From Cantharellus purpuraceus (taxonomy: Eukaryota > Basidiomycota > Agaricomycetes > Cantharellales > Hydnaceae): a DNA stretch of 64,000 nucleotides. The stretch lies in NCBI GenBank assembly GCA_025174535.1, contig JALBUN010000001.1:1984001-2048000 (forward strand), in the 5' to 3' direction. The notes beneath the pieces were generated by a model, which worked only from the letters and a program-made list of their open reading frames with translations, did no database searches and had not been told where the DNA came from. The translations under genes and the position numbers were made by a program. Shown here piece after piece: positions 9,342 to 59,237 of the stretch (position 1 is its first letter; the number at the start of each line of letters is the position of its first letter).

Positions 9342-12300
9342 CTACATAAACACAAAGAAGCACAAAACCCGTACCACTTGAAACATGGGATTCACTGCAG
9401 AATGGGGAACGGTATATGGACTTGAAGGGTGTGATGCTGAACCAAGCTCGTGAGGGCTAGGTTGGGATTGCTGCTGCATAGACGTGATGGGCGGCAACGG
9501 CCCTAAATGCGAATCCTCCATCCGACGTCCAGCCACGTTTCCCATCGCATTGGCGTGCCCGCCAGCTTGCTGATGATAAACCTGATCTGTATGCTTATTC
9601 GGAGACCATTGTGTATGCGACTGTGTAGGGGAAATCGACAAGTCATGCATAGGTGGTGGTGATCCAGTGTCAGACAGAGTAGGTTCAAAAGTTGCGCGCT
9701 CGTGAAACTCGCGAACAAACTGGTGATCAAATGAATTTGATGATCTTGCTGAAGGAGAAAAACCTCGCCCAGAGGATGTCCGTAGAGAGGAAATCGACGT
9801 TGCACGAGGTAAATTATACACACTCTGAGCAGGCCGTTGTCGAAATGCTCGCGCTGGCCCGGGATCACTATCACCTGACGCGAATGAAATCATTGACATT
9901 CGGCTAATGCTGTGAACCTCTGACGACGACATCGAGTGATCGTCATCCAGGTCTCGCCGCCGCGCCTTGCTCCGATGCGACAACCAGTCCTCATGATCCT
10001 CTTCGCCCTCCAGCGCAGGGGGTAGAGCAGGGTCTCCTCGCTGCTTGCCCTTAACTATAGTTCGCGTCCGCGCTTTGGCGGCAAGCATGCTCGAGTGAGT
10101 AGATTGCCAGTCTATCTCACTACCCTCCGTATTCTGTTTGATCATTTGATTACGCTTCTGCATCACAGCGCGGGCTTGCTCCAGCTGCATCTTCTTAGCT
10201 TGCGCACGCCGTGCTTTCTCCGCATCTCGGGCTTGTCGTTCCTGCTCCTTCTTGAGCTTCTTAGCATCCACCATAGATGCAATAGGTGGGACAACAGGAC
10301 CTGTAGGTGAAACTTCGGGTAGAGATCGGCTGTCAGTAGTGCTACCGGTTTGGGTACGCTTGAGGGACGGCGTTGAACGTGACGAAGAGACGTTCAATTC
10401 GTCCACCGGTGGCAGAGGATTGGGCTGGTGCTTTTCTCCTCCATGACCAAACACAGATGGTAACGCCCATTTACTGTGTTTCTTGCCGAATCCAAGTGAA
10501 CCAAGTTTGCCAAGTCTGTTGTGAGGAGAAACTGGCGTGGCAATGTCGTCCACAGGACCAAGTGAATAGTCTTGACCTGTCACTGGATCATCGTCTGGAG
10601 GAAGAGAGTGTACAATCGGCGAGTGTGGAACGTCCATAGGAGAATCATGGCTTTCGGAGAGTGTCTCGCCGCGACTCTCTGGTGCAGGAGATATTTCCAT
10701 ACCCCAATTATCCGGAGAGCCCGTCTGCACCCGTCTCGCGCGGACCCCGACGGCCGAGAACGAGTTCAGCGAACTCGGGGATGGGGGTGAACGATGGCCA
10801 TAACTAGCCAAGTCGTCAGTGGGGAGATCGTACTCCCGTAGCTGGTCTGCGAATTCAGATGTAATAGATTGCGAAATGCTATAGAGCTGGCCGTGGAGCA
10901 TGTCGCTTGGATAAAGTGGTACATGGTGGGAAAGTGCTTCTGGTACAGGCTGAGCAAGCGAAGGCTCAGCATGTGGAGTAAAGGCATTGAATGCGGGCCT
11001 CGGATGTGATGGAGATTGTGAATGAGATGGCGGGACCGCGCGAGGAGGGATTGAAGGAAGACCGTCGGAATAAGCAGGCGTGAGACGCGGGGTGCGGCTG
11101 GGTACGGGTGCTGTGGTAATATGGGGTGGATGGTGATGGGCATGCACGTGGCGAGCTGTCTCGGTCAGGTACGGATGGCTCAGACAATCTTTCGATGTCA
11201 ACCGTGCTTCTGGGTTATACCTGAGAAGGTCTTCAATACAATCAATCAGAGAAGGAGGAATAGAACAGTCAAAAAAGGATCGAAAGTGTTTTGGCTGAAG
11301 CTGCAAAAGAGCGCTGTAAGAAATGGCCATGGTCACAACAAGACAACCCACCTCAGGGAATTTGAATCCAACTTGCTTCGCCATCTGAACGCCTCGCATC
11401 CACAGCCCTCCTCCTATTCTCCGCCCTCGCCCGTCAACACCATAATCATGGTGTGGGTCGCCCAATATGTCACAAATCCGTGCCACCTGATCGATTTCGC
11501 CAGCACCAGGAAAAAGAGGTTTAAGGTTGATCAGCTCCGCAAGGATGGTACCCAAAGCCCACATGTCGACAGGATTCGAGTACTCCCGACTGCGTAGTAA
11601 TACTTCTGGCGCACGATACCATCGTGTGGACACATACTCGGTATATGGTGGACGAGACCGGGTTTCACGGGCTAAACCAAAATCAGCCAGTTTGATTATT
11701 ACAACGACATCCCTCTCGGCGGGAGCCCCTGGAAGTACGATGGGAGATGTAGGTTGGTAGTCGGTAAGACCGGTAGTCGTCACTAGGAGGTTCTCGGGTT
11801 TCATGTCGCGATGAAAGTATCCAGAAGCGTGTATGTGATGCAGACCGTTGACGACTTGGCTATATATAGAATATACAAGACCTCCAGCGAGTGGCCGACC
11901 TTTTCGCGACTTGATCAATTGGTACAGATTGCCCTCCATACTCTCGAAGACGAAGTATAACTCCTTGGTGGACGGAAGGAGAAAGGAGTCATAAAGAGGA
12001 ATGATATTGGGATGGGCTGGTATGGAACGTAACGACTGGAAAGACTGATGAGAAGGAAGAGGAATGGAAAGAAGAAAGACGTACCTCGAGCTCCTTCAGT
12101 CTACGACACTCATCCCAGCCACCCTCCCATCTTTTCTTCATCCGTTTGACCGCCACAAGTCTCTTGCCAGACCACTCTGCCCTAGCTCCTGCACCGCATT
12201 GCATAGGCGATAAAGGCGTGTTTGGGGGTAGAGTCCCGTGCCAATCACAGAGCCAAACGGTACCGAAGGAGCCATCTCCGACGACTTTGAGAGGGGTCCA

Positions 12301-12653: not shown

Positions 12654-13056
12654 GATACTGCATGGACCAATGCTGAGAAAAAAGAGGGAGGTTCGACTGC
12701 GAAAGAAGCCTCTTTAGGAACCTCCCAAAGTGGAGAGATAGTGATTGGATAGGATAGGGATCACAAGAACATGGGAGAAATACAATAAGGTTAGCTGGAT
12801 GGGTGGAGGATCAGGGATGGTGGTGGTGGAGGAGGAGGAGGAGGAAGAAGATGAAGGTAGGAAAAGAAGGTAGCAGTAAGAACTTGGAGCGCACGGGTCG
12901 AACACTAGCGGCGTCGGATCAGCGCCTACTCAATACTCCAATAGCCATATGAAGCGAGTTCTCATCAGAGTTTGAAGCTTCAACATAAAATTCAATTTCT
13001 TAACAGCGACTGATGCGGGCTAAGACATGTACGCTAGTCTTTCTATAGCTAAAACT
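12654..13056. other. intergenic, kinase promoter and PRPP synthetase 3' flank
   Basis: The kinase 5' region holds a purine-rich tract at about 12,815-12,870 (GGT/GGA/GAA repeats) on the plus strand, which is a pyrimidine tract on the sense strand of the kinase, as is common in fungal promoters. I see no open gene. Confidence 0.4.
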
Positions 13057-14430
13057 CTAGTAGGGAATCTCCGTAAACAGCTTGCTCACGCTCTCCTGTA
13101 CTCCCAGTTAGCGCTGCGCCATTGTGTTCTTTGTTCAGCCAGCAAGACTCACTCCGTAATGGCTTCTTCGTATAACTTCTCCAAGCACATTGCCCACATC
13201 AATCACCTCAATCTTGTTGCACTTGGCCTGGTTCTCCCTCTGGGGTATCGTATTCGTCACTATCAGCTTCTTCAATGTGCTTTCGCGAATAGCTTGCAAC
13301 GCCGGGCCCGACAGAATACCATGGGTCACCATTGCGTACACATCGGCTGCCCCGGCTTCGGAGAGTTGTTTGGCAGCCAAACAAATAGTTCCGCACGTGT
13401 CCGCCATGTCGTCTACAAGGATTGCCACCTTCCCCTTCACATGTCCCACCAACACCATCCTCGACACTTCATTGGCTTTCTTACGCTCCTTATGAAACAG
13501 CGCAAAATCAACACCTAGCCGGTCTGCCATCGATGTCGCCCTGCCAATCGTATGAAAAGATCAACCCCCTGCATAACTTGTGCCCATACCGTTTGGCTCC
13601 CCCAGCATCTGGGGATACAATGATGAGGTTCTCAATCTCAAAGTGAGTGCGGATGTAGTGAAGTGCTGAGGGCTCCGCATAGAGCTGGGGAAGGCAGTTA
13701 AATTTATGACTTCTTACTGCATGCCTCCACTCACGCTACGTGGACCGTGAAGAACACCCAGTATTCCGAACTATGTCAAAGGGTCTCCACAGACAGGTGC
13801 AAAGTATCACTCACTTGTCCACCGGCACATCAAAAAAACCCTGAATCTGCGATGCATGTAGATCCATCGTCTGGTCCAAAGAAATGAATCCAAAATATGA
13901 CCCGCGACCAGCACTGAAGTGCTACACCCACGATGACATGATCACATCCAGACCGCTGCAGCATATTGGCCACCAATTTTGCCGTGATTGGTGCCCGACT
14001 GCGCTCTTTTTTATCCTGTCTTGCATACGGGAACAGCGGAATGACAGCCGTGATCCGCTTCGCACTCGCAATTTTGCAAGCATGGATCATTATGCACAGC
14101 TCCATTAACGCCGTATTGATCGCCCCGCATCCAGTGTTGATAATATATACGTCGTCCTCCCGAACAGACTCTGCAATACGCACGGAGGTCTCGCCGACAC
14201 CGTTGCGAGTGACCTCTGCTTTTGAAACCTGCAAGCCGATTCTACAGCGCAAAAAACACATCAGAATGCTTGCATGTGAGATGATAGACCACAAACGACA
14301 TACCTGCGAGCAATTATTTCAGCTAGTTCAGGATGACTAGTGCCTAAGCAGACAGTGGCTGTTTAGCGCATGAGACGGATAGGAGGCAAATCTAACCTGA
14401 AAAAATTTTGATACTCGAGCCCGACAGCAT
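13057..14430 (-). CDS. PRS: ribose-phosphate pyrophosphokinase (PRPP synthetase)
   Basis: Makes PRPP from ribose 5-phosphate and ATP for purine, pyrimidine, His and Trp synthesis. Exons (minus): 14430-14397, 14343-14304, 14241-13932, 13870-13815, 13735 (single nucleotide), 13684-13590, 13540-13153, 13095-13057. The sum is 963 nt, 320 aa, the usual family length. Landmarks: start [40 protein letters not shown] (ATP and Mg loop); [54 protein letters not shown]-binding loop [15 protein letters not shown]; end [13 protein letters not shown]. Joining 13815 directly to 13684 breaks the frame. Including the C at 13735, which sits between ..cgtag and gtgagt.., gives AAC (Asn) and restores the family DNLYAEP sequence. 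An alternative 13-nt exon (TTCGGAATACTGG) is also in frame but inserts four residues not known in the family. Confidence 0.95.
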
Positions 14431-16594
14431 TGTGATACAAGAATACGAACGTGTCTTGTCCACTAGTGATTCGTCAAGGTGAGCTGAAGGCGAGCATGAG
14501 CGCTAGCGGCGCTGAATGTTGAAGTAAAGAGACTATGGACTCGGGTCACACGTCATCCCGCGGGTAATGCACTTGCCGCTGGTACGTCTTGGGCTGGGTT
14601 TACTCTATAGAGAGCCCTTCGCGTTCACTACTTCGCAAGTATGCAATAATGGATCACCCCGGCAGAGGGTGTTGCAAACTGCATCTACAATATCTAACTT
14701 ATAAGAGCCTAGTAATAATCAGTATGACCTAATAGACGGATTTATAGTACTTGTCTACTCCCACCCCCAAAAAGCGATTCTCATGCATCTCTCTGTATAT
14801 CCAGCTGGGCGTTCACATAATTCTGCCTATCCGTGTCAAAAGCTGGGCAAATTTTCTGCGGACAGAGACGATCCGCACTCGCTAGTATGGGTCCGTATTG
14901 ACGCGACACACGACCTGCATTAGGCTGCATACTTGACACTCGACTTGCTACAGCGAGTATGTTATCTATATGTCGTAGGATTTGTCCTGACCTGTGAGGT
15001 GCTTTTAGAGATGCCTTGGCAGAAGACTTTCAGCTTGACTAAGAGGTCAAAAGGCTGTCATCTCATAACTGAGGAAGTGACGCATCATCTTTCCGAAGGC
15101 TTGCGGGACACCAAGGTGAGAGCATAAGTGAGGAATTCGCCGTGAGGGAAGCCTAAGCATACGACCAGATAGGCATTCTTCATCTCTTTATGTTCGTATA
15201 TCAGCCATTGAAGGCCCCGAATCTATCAATTGAGACTTTGTAGTCAACATACCTCAGCTGCGTTGACGGTGAATGAGAACTATGACCCTGGTTGGTGATC
15301 AATGGTTTCAGGGAGAGCAATGCTACTCATGAGGGTCATTATGTACAGATGTTCGCAAAGGTGTGCCATCAAGAATTTTGAGGATCCTTGTCATTGTTGA
15401 ATTCTTGTTTTGGTATAGACATGACAATGTGTCTGGATAAGATCGTGCCCGAAAGCATGCCGTGGCTGTGAGCCATTTGTCATTAAACCACAACTTCGTC
15501 TGATCTTCTCGGGAGGCATACCGATGAAGGTCCAGAGTGAGTATTTGGTCCATCTATCATTCCATTGGCACTTAACTGCTTCACAGTGACTCGTAAGTAG
15601 TCTTGTTGCGGGTGCCGTCACTGATTGATAGCTCTAGTCAGTGTTTCGCATACAAAGACGGCGCTGATAGGGACATCTCTTCAACTTCCTATCACCGACG
15701 GCAGGCTCAATCTCGGAACATGGCAAGGCATGTGAATTCTGTAGCGCTCTCATGAATTGTTTCTTCAACCGAGATGTATAGGTATCTATCTGACGGAATT
15801 TAGACACATGCCACACTCTAGAAGAATTGTCGCTACCATTCTGTACGTGCATGTCCATTCATTGGAATCACACTTACACCACGGTCATGATCGTAGACCT
15901 TGAAGATGGATAGGTATGCACGAATGATTGTGTAGCTCTTGGTACTAGCGAGCCTGTTGTTTTTAATGTAGAAATATTGCAACAATGCGTCAGGATTGCT
16001 CACAGCACCATGTTGTGAGTCACCAATAATCAGTAAACTCAGGCTGGGTAAGGCGTGGCGCTAGCAGGTTGTAGATATGTTGACGCTACCCTGGTTACGT
16101 AGTGTTTTACAGCTCACCCAAACTGGAGTGTTGAGGTACTAGGCGAGACCCCTTTCTTCGGAAGGATGCCATCTAGGTTACCTACATTTGCAGGTGGTTG
16201 GTGAGGGTGGCAACCCCAACTGGGGTAATTCCTCACTGTTGGGGCTGTATTAGTGGCCCTAGATTCGTTTTTCTGTACACTAGCACTATCCGGGAGTGCA
16301 CATTTCCAGTCTGGTGGGGTCGCGTCGCACTCGTGACCCTGTTATAACCTGGGGCCAGATTTACCGCTCACGTTAGCGTTGGGCGGTGGTTCTGTGGAGC
16401 TCAGGTACCGTATAAGTACTGTATCCCATGCATTTTCTTAAATCTAAAATAGTATCTTTTACACAGTTAGTACTATAAACGAATCTTTGGGAATAAGGGA
16501 TCCTGTGTGATGATGACTTGTGAACCAGTGATACATGCGTGAAAGGTTTTGCAGTCAAATACGAGAATTTGTAGAGGCTATGGTTAAAAAATGA
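14431..16594. other. gene-poor 2.2-kb interval
   Basis: No reading frame here resembles a known protein; all are shorter than 90 codons and none joins convincingly by splicing. It holds one copy of a dispersed repeat (14890-15020). The 3' flank of the two-TM gene starts near 16594. It may be decayed transposon sequence or a non-coding RNA locus; I cannot tell which. Confidence 0.5.
14890..15020 (+). repeat. dispersed repeat, copy 1
   Basis: About 130 bp that reappears inverted at 32525-32644. The opening (ggtccgtattgacgcgacac) and the closing gccttggc are identical in the two copies, with small gaps and substitutions between them. No coding potential, terminal inverted repeats or obvious target-site duplications are seen. 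It may be a SINE or MITE-like element, or a conserved non-coding unit. Confidence 0.7.
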
Positions 16595-23048: not shown

Positions 23049-25819
23049 TTAATATCCTCCTTGATATGGCGGACTTGTACTCGTATCCGAGGGGATCGCA
23101 CCGCTGTTCCACATCCCATTTACTCTCTGTCCAGCCTCATTCATTGACACGTCGTCATCTTCATAACTCGGGCTGGGAAGTGGTGCAACATGGCCACCAG
23201 CAGCCACACCATTAATGTCTGGAGATTTGCCGTCCTCCCTTTGATTACTAGGAAACACGCCTGCGTGTGAGAAAGGATATAATGGTACTCCCACCTTTAA
23301 TGGCTGCGCCTGAGATGTCATCTGAAGAATTTCAGTCATCAAACCCTGCAGCAGCCTCTCCTGACGGACTGGGCCTGACCGTCAGCAACTGTCTTGAATG
23401 GCTAACTCAATAAAAAAACCTACTTCCTATGGGTGACTGAGTACCATACTCAAGCATTGCGAACCTAGAGACTCATTAAAACCTCATGCGATCAGGTTTC
23501 AGACACACAAACCGAAGTAAATTGATCTCTCCCCAAACGTTGGCTTCGCTTGCACGATCTCCAATCTCGATCAACCTCTTGCAAAGTTGTACTTGCACCA
23601 CTGCGGCAAGGTACCAACATATACTGTTTTCATTGTCAACATCGGGTAGACACACGAGTTGAAAAGCGAAGGCATACACTGCGAACGGATGTAGCCTCGT
23701 AATAGAGAATGATGTAGATGTGATCAAATAATAGGCCGTCAGAATCGCACGGGCAGCGTCAAGACACCTCGCAGCAGAAGAGTCGGATGCGGTTGCGAAA
23801 TTGATGAAAGGGTTATGAAGCGTAATTGTCGCTCTAAGAGGATAAGTGGAGTATGATTAGAATGTGAAAAGAGAAGGAAGAGTGACAACAGTGTACTGAC
23901 GCATGAGGAATTAGATGCACCAAGTACAAATCTGTGTCAATGCTTGTGCCATCAGGCGCATCGCCAATGCCAAGGCAATTCCTGTAAGCATGAGGCAGAC
24001 TGCCCAAAAACTCCACAGCCACGAGTCGATCGAGGGCCCGGAAATTGGAGGTAAGCCGCACATCCTCACCCTTGGATACCGAGGGGCGAAGATTCAAACG
24101 AACGGTGTAGTCCGTGACCTTGCCAAAAAGCATACATGCCTTGATGAGAAGTAAAAAGGAATCAGTGTATTGAGGAGGGTGTACAATCAACGTCGATTCA
24201 GAGGAGAAGTCTTGAGGGTTATTTTCCATCGCAATCTGTGAGGTGTAATTGCTCAGTCAGACAAGCCAATTCGCAAGAACTATCCGCACACCTCTGATTC
24301 AAAATCTGTGCTGCGAAGGGGAAGCTCTGTGCCAATGTCCCTCTCGTCGATGCCATGTAACCATCCTCCGACACTGACAATACGGTCAAAGAGTAAGCTC
24401 ATCCACCATGTTCGCCTCCTAAGCTCTAATTCCTTAGTGGTGCTTGGAGGCGGTAGATAACCCGCCGGAGAAGCACCAGATGGTTTTGAGTGAGTACCAG
24501 GGTAGTTTAACCGGAGAGGCACAGCCACTCGTGTTTGGAAACCAGCAAAAATCCACACTTCAACCCATCGACCTTCTGCATAAAGGTACCACGACAGGAT
24601 AATACAAGCCTGTAGCACCGCAAAGATCTGTGCACCGGACGCCATCGTCTGGTCAATGTAGGAGCGGGTTTTCGATGCGTGAAATTCCGCAAAGCGGTCT
24701 CTGCGTGTCCCATCGGCACCTACGCTAACTTCGCGTGATGTCCAGCGGGAGGCGGTTGCACATATGGCATGGAGCAAGGCCGGATGTGGAAAATCAGGAT
24801 GAGAAGGAGGATATGCAAGAGATGCCATAAACGATGGACGGTGCAGGATTCGTGATCCGCATGGGTCACACCGAAAGAATATCTCAACCCTTCACCATCG
24901 ACACGTTAGGACTTGTCTGGCGTACATACGAAAACAGACGCACAGACGAGTAAGAACTACAGGCTCTGGGAGGTCGGGATTCCACCCCAAGAACAATAAA
25001 TCCATGTATGGATCATTCTTGACATTCTGTTGACCAGTGACTTGTGACATGTCATACCCAGCAAGTTCATCGTTGGTATTCAATGGGGTTTGGTCGCTAG
25101 AGTCAATAGATAAGTTTAGGGATGCCCGAGGCAAGGCTATGCTTGATTGGGATTGTGGTGGGGAAGGGCTGGGATAAACTGATGAAGAAGGCGGTCTCTC
25201 TGGGGGGGACATCGATGTGACGCATTTTGTGCTCGTTGACCCGGGCGGCACCAAGCGGCCATGCTGGTAAGATGGCAGTTGCTGATGCTGATTGTGCTGG
25301 AACTGTGCTTCCTGTAACTTATACTTGAGGTCGGCTGCAGATGGATCGTTCAGCGGGCATGTACATGAAAAGTGGAAGCACGTACATATTTGCGTTTCCA
25401 GAAGGCGGATTCTGTCAGCAGGGTCTTCCGCAGTATCTGGAGCAAGCCTAAGTCCTTCAACAGGATCATAGGTGCAAGTGGGCTCCGTTGGGTGCCTACA
25501 CGGGTGTTAGCAGGGCCTAGTCAGATGGCAGACGATACATACGCGAATCCTACAGGAGGTGGAACGGCGCACTGGCTGGTCCATGTACGTACGCAAGTGC
25601 TGCAGTGGGGCCGCTGAGCATCACATTTCTGGTTTTATTAGGATGGCCCCGAGGTCAGCAGCGCCACATGACCACAAAACCAAGCTCACTAATTTTCTTT
25701 TCCTACACTGCTTGCAGGCCTGATTGCGCTTCAGAACTGATGTTGAACCGCCGGCTATCCACGGAGTTACATGGGTTGAGTGTTGTATCGGCCTGGGACT
25801 CACCTTTGATTTTGGGCAT
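23049..25819 (-). CDS. Zn2Cys6 fungal transcription factor
   Basis: Nuclear DNA-binding regulator of the fungus-specific Zn(II)2Cys6 class. The start is at 25819 (MPKIK). After one intron comes SVLKRNQACKQCRKRKL, and after a second KCDAQRPHCSTCVRTWTSQC, giving the full C-x2-C-x6-C...C-x2-C...C cluster. A Ser/Pro-rich linker follows, then the fungal_trans middle-homology region around 24,830-24,280: HPALLHAICATASRWTSREV, GAQIFAVLQACIILSWYLYA, ELELRRRTWWMSLLFDRIVS. The C-terminal segment near 23,340-23,049 is acidic and Ser/Pro-rich. Targets are unknown, and no metabolic cluster lies beside it that would suggest a pathway role. Internal exon borders between 23.4 and 24.2 kb were not all resolved. 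Confidence 0.87.
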
Positions 25820-26166: not shown

Positions 26167-29100
26167 ATGGCTCTACACACCGCAGGGGTCGATAGATGGG
26201 CGGCTGGAGTTAGAAATAGAATGGCTAATGATCCAGGCCGTCAAGATCTTGACGACCACATCCTCTGCAACGGTTTCTTGTTTCTAGACGAGTACCTTGA
26301 AGAGATCCTACTAGGAGTCAGATCAGAGTACGTCGCACTCATCCCTTACTAGGAGTCAGATCAGAGAATTATTCTGTCTTGTAGACCCATCATTGAATTG
26401 ACAAAGACGCCTGGAAGACGAAAGGATACGTCCAAGAAGGATAGAGTCGCTACAGCTGCGAGCGTGAAGAAACTCAAGGTAGTCCTTCACTTGCATTGTG
26501 AACCGGGTGCTCAGTATAAGCTGCAGTCCCCCGATAAGGAAAACATTCCTGTTTTGCAGTCTCATTTACATGGGAAGAAAGCCCCAACTTCGTTCCAGAA
26601 GGCATTATCGAAGGCAAGCAGGAATAATCAGCTGAAATCATTCTCGCGGGCACCGGAAGACTCGGATGCTGATCTCACAACTCACTTTGTCGTAGTCAGA
26701 GATGGAGATGATGCGCAGGACGTGCAGGACGAGCAGGACGTTGCGGTGCTAATCACTCCCCCATTGACCCGCGTGATGGGGACTACCGAATTCAAGGAGT
26801 CGGTCTCATTACCTTCCATGTCCGCCAATGGCGTGTCTAGGCCCCTGGACTCCGGCTTTGGACTCCCGTCAACGTCCAATGCAGCCATGGCCAATCCTGG
26901 CGTGGACTTGTCAGTAATTGCCGAAAGCGATGAAAGCCCTATGTCACAGGCCTCTTTACCGGCTGGCCCTATCATTCGTGATAAAGAAATTTCCTACCAC
27001 ATCCCTACCGATCCAAGTAATCCAAATGGCGCATTGTCGACTGTCACCGTCTCTTACGATCCTAATGCAGATGACGATGACGACGAAACTCAGGCCTCTC
27101 CAGCAGCATTTCACTATACTTTCAACGAGTCTGAGCCAACTAGCACTGCCAGCTCGTTTCCGATCGACCCATATGCGCGCGACTATGAAACTCATGAGCT
27201 TCCGCAAATGGTGGCTGAGCATCCGCCGACCGAGCAACCTCAGCCAGCACCATCATTGACCCGAAAGGCGAGTGTCCCCGTGTTACCAAGTCTTCCTGGC
27301 CCATCACCATTGCGCAAATCCACGCGTGACCCCGCGGTTGTTGGTCCAACTGCTGGCAATGCGCACCCCAGTGCAACAACTGGTACTGTTACTGGCACAC
27401 GGACCTCTTGGCTAATTAAAGCTCGAGATGTTACTGCCAAACGCGCTAGTGTTGTCTCTGGCGTCAAGCGGAAGAGTGGTGATTTGACTGTGGAAACAGA
27501 CTTCACAATGGCGACGGATGCTTATTCCAGGGCCACCAAAGTGGCGAAGACAAATGCTGGTGATGGCGTGTCAGATGCTCTTTCTGACAAAGAGAAGCCT
27601 CAAGGTAAGTTGGCTATCCAGCCATTTAGAGCCATTGTACCCGTCAAAGCCAAGGAGCAATTCCATGAGCTGTCTGTCGCATCTCCTGGCGACAGCTCAG
27701 AGGGGATGATGGACATACTCAAACGTACAGTGGAGGGCTTGGGGACTCGTGTTGGCAAGAGTATGGGCAAGTCACTCGGTGGTGCTGCTGCAACGGCGGC
27801 AGCGGCAGAGGCCAAAGCAGCAGCTGAAGCAAGGCTAGCTCAGCGAGAGGCCAAGGGCTCTGATGGAACTAGACAAGGTAGGTTGAGTGTCTCGGACCTT
27901 GTCGGAGCATACGAGACTGGCGGAGCAGGCAAAGAAAAGGATCGAGAATACTCAGACCCCAAGACGAGAGTGCCCCAGTCGCCTCTTCCACCCACTCCAT
28001 CGGTGGTTCCAGGATCTAGAGCGAGTGTCTCTACCACTCCGCCCGACTCACCTCCCACTACGCGATCACAGATGTCCCCTGGACAAACCACCTACGCCAT
28101 CCCGAAGTTCACAGTCCAGCGGCCCATAGCATATGATCCTTCGTTTGAACCAATTGAATCTCAACAATCTCAGCCATCCACGCAATCAACATATTTGTCC
28201 AGCATATTTGATGATAATTCCATCAAGCCGCAGTCTTCTCTCGGCACGGAATATACGTTTAGTCAAGCGGCGGAGCCAGTGTCTACCGGTTCCAGCCATG
28301 AAAGCTCCATACCTCACATCCAGTCTGGTCTGATCGCACAAGCATCCACGCTTTTGTCGAAGGTTGTGGGGTCCAGTGTGAGCGGCGCCCTGGGTACCAG
28401 TAAGCGAGGCAGACCTGAACCCGTCAAAAGCATCCAACTTGCGGCTGCGGCTGCAAAGAAAGTTAGTCTCCAATTACTCCGTTTCCGAGCACTAATGACA
28501 CCACAATAGCAACAAGACGAGGCGGATAGAAAGGCAGCGAGGCTTAGGGAGATGGACAAACGACGAGCAGCCATTGCATCTAAGAAAGCCGATCAAGATG
28601 CTGCTGAGAAGGTCAAGCAGCAGGGTGACCGACACAAGAGAGAGCGTGAGGAGGGTCCTGAGAGGAACATAAAAATAACAGCAAAGAAGGTCCGAACATT
28701 TCAGCTTCCATTCCTGGGGCTCTTTTTGAAAATACACTTGGAAATCAGGTCGAAGAAGAAGTTACTAAGAAACGCAAAGTCGTCGTAGAAATCGAGAAGC
28801 CTCAGGGCAAGAAGCCTCTGTCAAAGCAGAAGAAGGAAATGGGAGGTTCTCGTATCGGCAAGTTTGCACTCAGCACATCTCTTTCTCACTCGCAACCTCC
28901 ATCCAATGGCACATCCAAGTCATTTAAACCACCTGGTATCGCTGCTTCAACCTCCCAACCCAGTGTCAAGCTGATAGGAGCCAGCCAAGGAGAGCCGAAG
29001 CCTTCTGCCCCGTTAAAAGCCACAACAAGTCAGGCCCCAGACAAAGGGCCCATCAATGGCATAGAAGACATCTGCCAGCCTTCAAAGGCGCTTCACGCTC

Positions 29101-29531
29101 AGATGCAGGCGCGTGTTGAAGCTCAGATGATGCAAGCTAGACAAGAGGAGCCTCTTATCCCTAGCGAGAGTATTGAGCTACCTGACATTAAGAGCGAGTA
29201 TGTTTTTTTTTTTTTTGTTTTTTTTTTTTGCCAGCCAGATGTTGAGCCTTCACATAGATACTCGAATTCCGACGATGAGGATCGTCCACGTACTTTCGAC
29301 CCCCCCGACTGGGCCCAGTCGCCAATACTAGGCCTCGCTTTGCAATCTCAGAGCCGACTGAACCCCGACGATATCTTTGGGCCTGTGAGGCCGTTGCGGA
29401 TGGAGGAGATTTTCACAACAAGGCACAGCCGCTTCCGAGCTCGGACGAGCAGTGCTAATTGGGCGGGCGCGGACGAGCTGACAACTGACGAACAGCGAGA
29501 GTATGCCAAGAGGATGGGTTATCTAGGTTGA
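26167..29531 (+). CDS. INCENP: INCENP (Sli15/Pic1), chromosomal passenger complex scaffold
   Basis: Scaffold that binds and activates Aurora kinase at centromeres and the spindle midzone. Exons: 26167-26327, 26385-28461, 28510-28689, 28749-29197, 29258-29531; 3141 nt, 1046 aa. The N-terminus (VDRWAAGVRNRMANDPGRQD, GFLFLDEYLEEIL) resembles the survivin/borealin-binding helix. A long disordered region follows, then a charged single-helix-like stretch (QQDEADRKAARLREMDKRRA). The C-terminal IN-box is clear: DIKSEYSNSDDEDRPRTFDP, PDWAQSPILGLALQSQ, NPDDIFGPVRPLRMEEIF, and the TSS motif region RARTSSANW. The last intron (29198-29257) contains long T runs, is 60 nt, has no in-frame stop and falls inside the DIKSEY motif. 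An upstream in-frame ATG at 26014 lies inside the repeat, so 26167 is preferred. Confidence 0.92.
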
Positions 29532-37275: not shown

Positions 37276-38992
37276 TCACATCCCCTTCGCTGCACGACTG
37301 GGGCTTGGAGTCCACCGGATATTTCCCAGTTCTCTCACTTTGGTAGCGCCTTTGGTAGCACCTTCCCAATTGGATTCATGCCGCATCACCTCTGCACGCC
37401 TTGCGGCAGACGTGCCGAGACCTGCTGTCCTGTCAAGTAGCCTTCTTGCAGCTGGAGTTAAAAGACCTGGGTGCGGTCGTGGTGTTGCTGGGGATGCCAT
37501 TCCATGGCTTTCGTGTTTCCCTTTGTAAAACGAGAGTTTTGATGGTCCGGGGGTCCCCGAGAGCAGGGATGCCTTGGCTCGCAAAGATCGTGAAGCAGTG
37601 GAGGAGAGCTTCTGAGCCACCCTCTCACGTGGTGTTGGGCCAGGGAGATGGAAAGGTGTGGCTGGTACAGGCACAATTCCAGAATCGGTCTCGGAAGAAA
37701 GTACTCTAGGCGTAGATGTAATCGTCCCCCACGTCATCAGCTTGTTCACTGCAGCGGCACCCAACTGGGATGGTGTGGGTGAAGGTAGGGAAGGGAGAAG
37801 TGGAAAGTCCTTGCGTTCGCCACGATGAACATCTACCGAAAAGATCATAAATACGTGCCAACTCAATTCGTATGGAGACTTTTAATCTTACAGGGTGTGC
37901 CTGCTATGGCGGCTCCGATCTTGCTACGTGTGGGACTAGAAGGCGCTGTACTGGCTGTCTCCCCTTCCTCGTTTGATTGCTCAGGTAAACGTGTATTAGC
38001 GTGCCTGATCTGTTTGGGTGGCCCCTTAGGCTGGGGTGCAGGTAGAGACGTAGGGCCATCGTACGGGGAGATGTCGGCATCTGGACTAAACATAAGGGAG
38101 TTGCGTGTCTTGAAACCAGATTCATGGGCTCAGTATTCGATCATCGACGCAACAGAAGACTCACCTTGAAAGTCCATCCATCCACTGCAGCTGAACGAGT
38201 ATCCTTCTTCTGCGCCATTACATCCACCTCGTCGAGGGGGATGGCAACTTTAACGATTGCGTTATTATGCTCCTTTCGTGATGTAGATGCGGTGGGTGGT
38301 TCCTTATCATCTGCACCTTTGACTATGGAATCTTCATTTGCTCCTTCTTCCAGGGGCCTAGATGCATCTGGGCAAGAGGTTATCATCTTGACAAGAGGTG
38401 TTTCTACCCTCAGTCGTTCTCGTACACCTGGTGGCTGAGAAGTTGTCTCTTCTATAAAAAGGCGTTCTCTCTTGCTAGTCTCGATGACCTTGATGTCCCG
38501 TGCTCGTTTCTGTGCCTCCCATGCCCAACCCCATTTTTCCTTCCTCTTCCGGTTCTCCTCATCTAAAATTTCCGTGAAACTAGCATTGTCTTCAGAAGTA
38601 TACTTGGCCTGAAAAGAGTCGAGAGAGTGCGACGTGTCATAACGAGGGCGTTTGTTGGGGCCAGACTGATTTCGCGCTGCGGGTGTGTCACTGGGACCTG
38701 CGCCGAACGGAGTGCGCCCAGGCGTTTGTGCAAAATATTGCGCGCTCCCTGTATTTGAAGCTTGAGGCGTAGCAAGGTCTTGTAAACGACGGACAGAGGC
38801 ATTGATGAGGTGCGTGTCTTCAGATTGCAGTGCATCGAGGTAAGAGTTTGTGGCGTCGAGATGAACAAGAGATGGAAAGAAGTCCCGGGCGATAATATCA
38901 GACAATGCAGCTGTATACTCCTCTTCTTCGAGGATTTGCTGGTGATTGAGAGAATGCGTCTCAGGACGCGAGCTCGATGTTCCGGAAGCCAT
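37276..38992 (-). CDS. ESS2: ESS2/DGCR14 (Es2) nuclear splicing-associated protein
   Basis: Es2 family protein, associated with the spliceosomal C complex. The start is taken at 38992 (MASGTSSSRPETHSL); an in-frame ATG at 39046 is possible. Diagnostic segment: QQILEEEEYTAALSDIIARD then FFPSLVHLDATNSYLDAL. Further family features: QTPGRTPFG, YTSEDNASFTEILDEENRKR with KEKWGWAWEAQ, and after an intron KTRNSLMFSPDADISPYDG. The last exon carries TPRPHPGLLTPAARRLLDRT, then LGNIRWTPSPSRAAKGM, with a Thr-Pro-rich tail typical of the family. It is convergent with FAM192A (105 bp between stops). Confidence 0.92.
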
Positions 38993-39165
38993 TAGGGTAG
39001 AAAAGGCAGGAATGGGTCCTTGTGTACGACTCTCAAGCACTTGCATGATCTGTAATTATCGGGCACTTAACTAAATGCTCTTCGAACAGACTTTGGAACC
39101 TCGAATACAGCCAACACAGGTATTACACAGGATAGTCTATTGGACACAAACTTTGGGCTCCCATC

Positions 39166-43746: not shown

Positions 43747-44132
43747 TGTATGGGAACCACCTTTTCCCTATCAAATTCCATTTATGCAGCACCAATGTGC
43801 TATTCTTTGCTTTTCCATTCCTAAATATCAGCATATATTTGATTGTATGGGAACCACCTTTTCCCTATCAAATTCCATTTATGCAGCACCAATGTGCTAT
43901 TCTTTGCTTTTCCATTCCTAAATATCAGCATATATTTGATTGTATGGGAACCACCTTTTCCCTATCAAATTCCATTTATGCAGCACCAATGTGCTATTCT
44001 TTGCTTTTCCATTCCTAAATATCAGCATATATTTGATTGTATGGGAACCACCTTTTCCCTATCAAATTCCATTTATGCAGCACCAATGTGCTATTCTTTG
44101 CTTTTCCATTCCTAAATATCAGCATATTTGAT
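43747..44132 (+). repeat. 97-bp tandem repeat, four units
   Basis: Units start at 43747, 43844, 43941 and 44038 with tgtatgggaaccacc. The first three are 97 bp and essentially identical; the last lacks an 'at' dinucleotide (95 bp). Because 97 is not a multiple of three, the same peptide text rotates through all three frames, giving overlapping spurious reading frames. Confidence 0.97.
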
Positions 44133-57911: not shown

Positions 57912-59237
57912 CTACTGCTTCGTTTTCGTGCACCCCGTCCGTCCGCTCGACAAACAGTCGAATAGGATTTCGACTATTCGAGTCTGCTCATTATAAGTCA
58001 ACAATACGGCAGGCACATGCACTGGCGGGGACCTACCAGGGACATCGATCAACAAATACCGGTATACAAACGTGCCGTTCGCATCCTGGTACATGGATAG
58101 CATGACTGAGTGTAAGGAGAAATTAGCCATTGGTACGCACTTTAACGAAGTCCGCATGCGCCTCCCCTGTACTCCAGAGAACTCCGTTAATGGCCTCATT
58201 ACGACCGCGGTAATTAGATCGTCGCTTTCCAGTCAAGCGGGTGAAGATGCCAGATAAACTCCATGGTGACTCTTGCTGAGTCGGTTGATTTGCTTCGGCA
58301 TCTTGTCTAAGGAGAGGTGCAGGGGGTAGCGGTGGTAGCGGCTCCCCAATTAGATAGGCAAACGCTCGCTTTGAGGTCTGTAAGACGTCAGACAGGGTGG
58401 CGTGGGTCCATTGGAGTGCTCGATCAAAAGTCAGATCCGATAAAGATGATACTGTTGATTTTGTCCAGTCGAGAGCGTGGTCAGCGAATGTCTCGGTGTC
58501 AGAATGCGCAAGCGAAAGAGATGGATCGCTTCCTTGAACGTAGAAGTTCAGGAGGAGATGTTCCTTTCCCGAAGAATCCCTCGCCTGGAAAAAGTTAACA
58601 TGTCGATTTCGATGTCGCGGACGATGCACTAATGGTGGATTATTGTGAAAACTTAGTGGCGCACGAAAGTGTGCATTGACCTGAATTGGAGGAAAGTCAG
58701 AGCTACTTGTACTTTCCAGGATAACGCCCATGGAAGTCCAGAAACGCACCAGTGATGATGCCTTAATTCGCTCACAGGCATCCCCATACAAGACTGTAGG
58801 TGAATTTTTGGCGAATAGCTCTGACGCTAACGCATAAACTAGAACAGCGGAGAGACCAGCACCAAGAAGGATAACGGAAAAATTGGTTGTCCTAGCAGTG
58901 GTACGTAGCACTGATGCAAAGAATCAGGATACTAGAAAAAGGACTTCATGAGATCTGAGGTTTGAACTGCACCTTTACCACCCGTACTGAGCTCTGACCA
59001 CTTTTTCACCTTCCGTGTCGATGGTTGTACAATTCCGAGTTGAAAAGGCCCGACGCTGTCGGCAGTGCGACTAGCCTTGCGCTGCTCAAACTGTTGAGAA
59101 AGTAAGGAGGAAGGCGAATGATCTTTGTGAGTCGCATATGTGCGACGGCCATGAAGGGCTCTGGGTTTGAGTCGTGCTGCACTACATCTACACGGCACCG
59201 GAAGTAACACGAGGTGACGAGTTACCAGACGCGACAT
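57912..59237 (-). CDS. TIM21: mitochondrial inner-membrane translocase subunit TIM21
   Basis: TIM23-complex subunit that contacts TOM22 and couples to the respiratory chain. The start at 59237 gives a basic presequence (MSRLVTRHLVLLPVPCRCSA). After one intron: TTARTTNFSVILLGAGLSAV, the single TM segment, then SPTVLYGDACERIKASSLVR. The family core continues with PIQVNAHFRAPLSF and RHVNFFQARDSSGKEHLLLN. The last exon starts after the intron following HADFVK and reads DANGTFVYRYLLIDVPGR, ending at 57912. An insert of about 90 aa (DWTKSTVSSL..RLTGKRRSN) lies between core strands. Confidence 0.92.

What the first reader, a model, noticed from the sequence alone, without database searches (positions are those of the whole stretch)
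13685..13870. Single-nucleotide exon in PRPP synthetase
Seen: exon 4 ends GTG GAC AA|gtgagt at 13815 and the next clear exon starts CTC TAT GCG at 13684. Direct joining is out of frame. Between them lies ..cacgtag|C|gtgagtgg.., i.e. a lone C at 13735 with a good acceptor before and a good donor after. Including it gives AAC CTC TAT (Asn-Leu-Tyr), the invariant VDNLYAEP of the family, leaves introns of 79 and 50 bp, and makes the total CDS 963 nt = 320 aa, the family length. Exons of one base are almost unheard of; I know of one plant case. Alternative: a 13-nt exon (13757-13769) is in frame but inserts four foreign residues.
Basis: partly seen in the sequence, partly recalled or inferred. Interest (0 to 1): 0.92.

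Follow-up and report, generated by a model that had tools for sequence, protein, structure and literature searches.

The report
One-base exon in a mushroom gene
A gene for an essential metabolic enzyme in a mushroom-forming fungus appears to contain an exon only one base long, and the same oddity seems to be present in relatives, where most of the annotated gene models examined go wrong at exactly that point.

Summary
On the minus strand a PRPP synthetase gene (14430-13057) has an exon ending GTGGACAA|gtgagt at 13815, the next clear exon starting CTCTAT at 13684, and between them ccacgtag|C|gtgagtgg with the lone C at 13735. Including it gives 963 nt, 320 residues plus stop, reading VDNLYAEP. 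Relatives agree. Of the 120 homologues listed, 70 of 71 short-contig (transcript-like) proteins read VDN, but only 6 of 49 genome-annotation proteins do; the other 43 are broken at this junction, and no other internal indel occurs in the 120. Transcript-like proteins identical to Pleurotus, Postia and Leucocoprinus models outside the junction read VDN where those models fail. Of eight unspliced database ORFs that reach far enough upstream, seven read Q-R-K or Q-R-E 16-20 codons before LYAEP, as CAG|C|GTRAG would. A one-base exon shared by many Agaricomycetes is the best explanation. One-base exons are known in plant APC11 and VPS55 and Fusarium CYP621A, so this is a new member of a very small kind. 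I had no RNA from this species and read no genomic DNA of other fungi.

The parts
14397..14430 (-). exon 1 (34 nt), start codon at 14430
   Evidence: N-terminus [12 protein letters not shown] matches homologues
14304..14343 (-). exon 2 (40 nt)
13932..14241 (-). exon 3 (310 nt)
13815..13870 (-). exon 4 (56 nt), ends GTG GAC AA
13736..13814 (-). intron 4 (79 nt), GTGAGTGA...CCACGTAG
13735..13735 (-). exon 5: the one-nucleotide exon (C), third base of the Asn-147 codon
   Evidence: relatives
13685..13734 (-). intron 5 (50 nt), GTGAGTGG...TTTAACTGCCTTCCCCAG
13590..13684 (-). exon 6 (95 nt), starts CTC TAT GCG (LYAEP)
13153..13540 (-). exon 7 (388 nt)
   Evidence: Pfam Pribosyl_synth in the ORF here
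13057..13095 (-). exon 8 (39 nt), stop codon ending at 13057

Best explanation
Base 13735 (C) is a constitutive one-nucleotide exon of a PRPP synthetase gene. The pre-mRNA is spliced as two short introns, 79 nt and 50 nt, leaving the C between GACAA and CTCTAT so that the mRNA reads GAC AAC CTC TAT (Asp-Asn-Leu-Tyr). Shown: the letters, the frame, and agreement with proteins and unspliced ORFs of relatives. Inferred: one base cannot seat the acceptor-side and donor-side complexes at once, so the two introns are removed one after the other, each recognised as a short intron unit (order unknown); the arrangement is shared by many Agaricomycetes; and it arose when a second intron came to lie one base from an older one.
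For: Frame, length and conserved motif. 70 of 71 short-contig proteins VDN against 6 of 49 genome models, Fisher p 7e-25, sequences not independent. No other internal indel in 120 aligned proteins. Short-contig proteins 100% identical outside the junction to Pleurotus (three models), Postia and Leucocoprinus leucothites models read VDN where the models do not. VDK and VDK plus W, Y or C fit read-through of AA|GT. In 25 unspliced fragments Q (24) or K (1) precedes L[YF][AG]EP, as for an intron ending in AG at phase 0; 7 of the 8 that reach 21 residues or more upstream show QRK or QRE 16-20 codons before L; at most 2 of 8 in 50000 shuffles. The intronless paralogue on contig C23 reads GATAATTTATAC at this place.
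Against: No RNA from this species and no genomic DNA of other fungi at the site; nucleotides of relatives are inferred from amino acids. That short contigs are transcripts is inferred from uninterrupted frames. Six genome models read VDN, and I cannot tell whether by the one-base exon or by loss of an intron; one short-contig protein reads VDS. P0209 reaches 22 residues upstream without QRK/E, as does P0225 (21 residues; not counted among the 26 unspliced fragments). Six of the seven QRK/E fragments are nearest to Heterobasidion, so the DNA-like evidence covers few lineages. The bare AG-Y-GT motif is common by chance.
Confidence: 0.93

Rival explanations
1. The middle exon is the 13-nt TTCGGAATACTGG (13770-13758), giving VDN-SEYW-LYAEP.
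For: In frame with GT and AG borders.
Against: Needs a 44-nt intron and a GTGTTC donor; adds four residues found in none of the 88 short-contig proteins examined (71, 17).
Confidence: 0.02
2. One intron of 138 nt using the GT of the Val codon as donor (CCG|GTGGAC...CCCCAG|CTC), deleting Val-Asp-Asn.
For: In frame; 6 of 49 genome models, Hysterangium among them, are annotated without VDN.
Against: Weak donor GTGGAC; 88 of 88 short-contig proteins keep all three positions (87 VDN, 1 VDS); a short-contig protein identical to the Pleurotus eryngii model outside the junction has VDN.
Confidence: 0.02
3. An ordinary single intron of 130 nt, with one exon base lost from the assembly or from the gene.
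For: A C before GTGAGT would give GACAAC|GTGAGT and an ordinary phase-0 intron.
Against: Many independent genome annotations fail at the same junction with K read from AA plus G, and unspliced ORFs of relatives show a lone C between CAG and GTRAG.
Confidence: 0.02
4. The missing base is supplied by RNA editing, or the frame is restored by ribosomal frameshifting.
For: Either could restore the protein.
Against: Short-contig ORFs run through VDNLYAEP in one frame, so the base is in the RNA; editing gives no reason for a C flanked by splice signals in relatives.
Confidence: 0.01

Closest known systems
One-nucleotide exon of CYP621A in Fusarium (PMC12940212, 2026; parts 1 and 2 of 3 read)
   Same: Fungal nuclear coding gene; one base restores frame and a conserved motif; small introns; gene models wrong at the junction; conserved among orthologues
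   Different: Ascomycete genus, G in a Gly codon, P450 of unknown function; RNA reads available. Here Agaricomycetes, C in an Asn codon, essential enzyme, no RNA reads seen
One-nucleotide exon of APC11 in Arabidopsis (PMC4674806; part 1 of 3 read), conserved in land plants (PMC8831610; passages)
   Same: One-base constitutive exon needed for the frame; deep conservation; missed by annotation
   Different: Plants; shown by cDNA and by mutating the base in protoplasts, which has not been done here
One-nucleotide exon of VPS55 in plants (PMC8831610; passages)
   Same: One base, strong GTRAGT donor after it, missed by annotation, conserved
   Different: Part of alternative splicing in some lineages; no alternative use known here
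Single-base exons in Candida snoRNA host transcripts (PMC5033589; passages)
   Same: Fungal introns separated by a single base, with ordered or nested splicing described
   Different: Non-coding host transcripts, so no reading frame depends on the base
Placozoan mitochondrial cox1 single-base exon (PMC5436844; search listing only)
   Same: One-base coding exon
   Different: Mitochondrial, not spliceosomal (recalled)

Membership tests
Nuclear one-nucleotide coding exon | A single base flanked by AG and GT between two introns of usable length | tested here: met
   CCACGTAG|C|GTGAGT; introns 79 and 50 nt
Nuclear one-nucleotide coding exon | Leaving the base out breaks the frame | tested here: met
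   Stop after 186 residues
Nuclear one-nucleotide coding exon | Inclusion in transcripts of this species | not testable with these tools
   No RNA data held
Nuclear one-nucleotide coding exon | Inclusion in transcripts of relatives | tested here: met
   Only at protein level and assuming short contigs are transcripts: 70 of 71 VDN
Nuclear one-nucleotide coding exon | Same site in genomic sequence of relatives | tested here: inconclusive
   Amino-acid read-through only: 7 of 8 long enough fragments show QRK/E, few lineages
Nuclear one-nucleotide coding exon | Mutating the base changes the mRNA base | not testable with these tools
   Experiment
Recursive splice site (zero-length exon) | AG directly followed by GT, no base left in the mRNA | tested here: not met
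   One base lies between AG and GT and is needed for the frame
PRPP synthetase (ribose-phosphate pyrophosphokinase) | Family domains along the protein | tested here: met
   PF13793, PF14572 and PF00156 above cut-offs; 4lzn, residues 6-319, E 1.3e-132

The most novel reading that the evidence does not exclude
The one-base exon was already present in the common ancestor of Agaricomycetes or earlier (the ascomycete Ascobolus also reads VDK), and it is kept because its difficult splicing acts as a brake: failed splicing truncates an enzyme at the head of nucleotide synthesis after 147, 153 or 186 residues, so PRPP supply follows splicing capacity.
Probability: 0.1. Interest if true: 0.85.

Novelty: new member of a known kind. 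Interest (0 to 1): 0.7.

Why it matters
If true, this is a broadly conserved coding exon at the lowest possible size, in an essential gene, in a fungal class with transformable laboratory species, so the question of how a spliceosome handles an acceptor and a donor one base apart becomes testable. It means that PRPP synthetase models of many sequenced mushrooms are wrong at this point. It also suggests a way to find such exons without RNA reads: annotation errors piling up at one junction while transcript-derived proteins are intact. My ten paper searches (open-licence PMC papers only, mostly judged from titles and abstract openings) listed no one-base exon in Basidiomycota or in PRPP synthetase.

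Tried and rejected
DNA of relatives: patterns in genome contigs and viral contigs gave 0 matches. Two protein-guided scans of viral contigs gave only distant relatives (36-50% identity in the best segment) in viral contigs, not pursued. Other genomes related to G000 are not held. RNA structure around the site is no stronger than shuffles (z -0.06). No Rfam family in 13000-14500. Reading the S at the end of the inserts LYYS, FGYS and RGYYS as AG plus a pyrimidine fits but is ambiguous and is not used as evidence. Occurrence outside Agaricomycetes is unresolved: P0206 (ANVS-LYAEP) may show one ordinary phase-2 intron; P0215 and ORFs resembling Pezizomycotina, some on contigs over 10 kb, run straight through the junction. 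An intron-length and splice-site survey of the whole genome was considered and not done.

Full report
The gene. The window lies in a 40-Mb assembly of 50 contigs with no relatives in the collection. The minus-strand gene at 14430-13057 encodes PRPP synthetase. Its nearest named proteins are from Sphaerobolus stellatus (89%) and Hysterangium stoloniferum (90%), so the organism is probably from that branch of Agaricomycetes (inference). The eight-exon model gives 963 nt and a 320-residue protein plus stop with three expected Pfam domains.

The site. Exon 4 ends GTGGACAA (13815) and exon 6 starts CTCTAT (13684). Direct joining is out of frame and stops after 186 residues; retaining intron 4 or both introns stops after 147, retaining intron 5 after 153. 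In the 130-nt gap the lone C at 13735 is the only in-frame middle exon if both introns are at least 45 nt; from 40 nt on, exons of 13, 25 and 31 nt, all starting at 13770 after a 44-nt intron, are possible too. Sixteen in-frame one-intron combinations with shifted sites also exist, each dropping or adding residues. The other introns of the gene are 53, 62, 61, 49 and 57 nt. Both donors begin GTGAGTG. By chance AG-Y-GT at a suitable place occurs in 1302 of 20000 random window segments and 3440 of 20000 resampled spacers; with a GTRAGT donor in 9 and 80. The sequence of this one species is suggestive, not conclusive.

Proteins of relatives. One search scored 7992 homologues and listed 120; all 120 were examined. 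I split them by longest contig: under 3 kb (71; sources jgi and lgn; taken as transcript-derived because an uninterrupted frame of about 320 residues lies on 1-3 kb) and over 10 kb (49 genome annotations, two of them also found in lgn). At VDN|L the short class reads VDN in 70 and VDS in 1. The genome class reads VDN in 6, VDK in 23 (one of them, P0112, followed by C instead of L), VDKW in 4, VDKY in 2, VDKC in 1, lacks all three residues in 6 and has other insertions or replacements in 7 (Fisher p 7e-25, sequences not independent). In the alignment of all 120 (A2) no other internal column differs in gap state; the N-terminal end does. The six genome models with VDN are Laccaria bicolor, two Taiwanofungus, Marasmius oreades, Moniliophthora roreri and Somion occarium; I cannot tell whether they annotate the one-base exon or have lost an intron.

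Same-species contrasts. With the junction left out, short-contig P0020 is 100% identical to three Pleurotus models that disagree with one another (VDK; deletion; VDKLTIGYLVS), P0073 to Postia placenta (VDK) and P0016 to Leucocoprinus leucothites (RGYYS). All three short-contig proteins read VDN. The transcript-like protein is ordinary; the gene models fail at one place.

A second probe. A 43-residue region with K instead of N pulled out K-type proteins; 120 of 7896 hits were listed, 64 of them new. By my grouping, 24 of 24 named Agaricomycete genome models were VDK (17), VDKC (6) or VDKY (1), among them an Auriculariales species, Peniophora, Amanita, Gloeophyllum and Plicaturopsis; 17 of 17 short-contig proteins were VDN; of 23 others, 21 were VDN, one VDH and one (Ascobolus immersus) VDK. 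The probe favours K by design, so it shows where K occurs, not how often. K is what AA plus the G of a GT donor encodes. In the forms with a single extra residue after VDK, that residue is W, Y or C in 14 of 14 (7, 7), all with codons beginning with T; in P0103 it is L, which may or may not. Exon 4 therefore seems to end at AA|GT in these genomes too.

Unspliced sequence of relatives. The third search used a 125-residue piece from exon 6 onward, so full-length proteins could not match; 120 of 122 hits were listed. Before running it I expected, in my reasoning and not in the notebook, that a read-through of intron 5 with a length of 2 modulo 3 would show the site as Q-R-E or Q-R-K (CAG CGT RAG). 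Of the 120, 26 run past GGAKR into the next intron and so come from unspliced sequence. A residue precedes L[YF][AG]EP in 25 of them: Q in 24, K in 1, as for an intron ending CAG or AAG at phase 0. Eight of the 26 reach 21 residues or more upstream, and seven of these contain QRK (six) or QRE (one) 16-20 codons before L, implying introns of 47-59 nt. The next residue is C, S, F or L, each of which can be coded by a codon beginning with T, as GTRAGT requires. P0209 reaches 22 residues without it, and P0225, outside the 26 and only about 74% like Agaricomycetes, reaches 21 without it; the site may lie in another frame or be absent (untested). In 50000 shuffles of the eight stretches at most two matched. 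The seven fall into about five intron types, and six of the seven are nearest to Heterobasidion, so this evidence covers few lineages. Arg rather than Cys at this place means that the lone base is C in these seven.

The rest. Sixty-seven of 120 read VDN directly before L, 17 lack the motif, and 10 have something else, including aberrant annotated Agaricomycetes such as Tephrocybe (VDNVCN-L) and Mycena; these are selected for being short and are not counted.

Controls. The paralogue on contig C23 of the same genome reads GATAATTTATAC with no intron there. ORFs beginning [23 protein letters not shown], resembling Pezizomycotina, run through the junction. PRPP synthetase 1 in the PDB (4lzn; human by recall) has VDNLYAEP, with Asn-144 opposite Asn-147 here.

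How it works. Shown: letters, frame, and the agreement above. Inferred: both introns are short and recognised as units; one base cannot seat acceptor and donor complexes together, so removal should be sequential, and after the first step the remaining site is either GACAAC|GTGAGT or CCACGTAG|CCTCTAT. The origin is uncertain: P0206 (ANVS-LYAEP) may show an outgroup with one intron ending AG|C CTC, which would make a phase-0 intron one base downstream the later gain; the Fusarium paper (PMC12940212) proposes loss of a base and capture of a cryptic exon.

What is known. One-base exons are reported for Arabidopsis APC11 (PMC4674806, part 1 of 3), conserved APC11 and VPS55 in land plants (PMC8831610, passages), Fusarium CYP621A (PMC12940212, parts 1 and 2 of 3), Candida snoRNA hosts (PMC5033589, passages) and placozoan mitochondrial cox1 (PMC5436844, listing only). 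A Trichoderma paper (PMC11121469, passages) says that fungal microexons are little studied; the P450 study of the basidiomycete Phanerochaete gives a shortest exon of 6 bp (PMC1184071, passages). My ten searches listed no one-base exon in Basidiomycota or in PRPP synthetase, within an open-licence library.

Verdict.

Noticed in passing
window 43747-44127: Tandem array of a 97-bp unit, 3.9 copies with 100% matches, in a stretch where no ORF of 200 aa or more was listed.
   Followed up: no
P0162 (Ascobolus immersus): An ascomycete genome model also reads VDK at the junction; either a true substitution or the same split codon far outside Agaricomycetes.
   Followed up: no
P0206, P0218, P0225: Fragments only about 70-76% like Agaricomycetes: P0206 reads ANVS-LYAEP (perhaps an ordinary phase-2 intron), P0218 and P0225 read Q-LYAEP (an intron at phase 0), so the intron history at this site reaches beyond the class.
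   Followed up: partly
G000 contig C23, about 3152434-3153240 (L003, L005): A diverged PRPP synthetase paralogue (64% in its best segment) with no intron at the VDN-LY junction.
   Followed up: partly
window 13817-13822 and 13740-13745, minus strand: GUGGAC near the end of exon 4 is complementary to GUCCAC just before the GUAG acceptor and pairs with it in the predicted fold; overall folding is no better than shuffles.
   Followed up: partly
window 9345-12095, 28662-29528, 37279-39055, 58126-58923, 24283-24891: Neighbouring ORFs with Pfam matches: protein kinase, INCENP ARK-binding, Es2 (two pieces), TIM21, fungal transcription factor domain.
   Followed up: no
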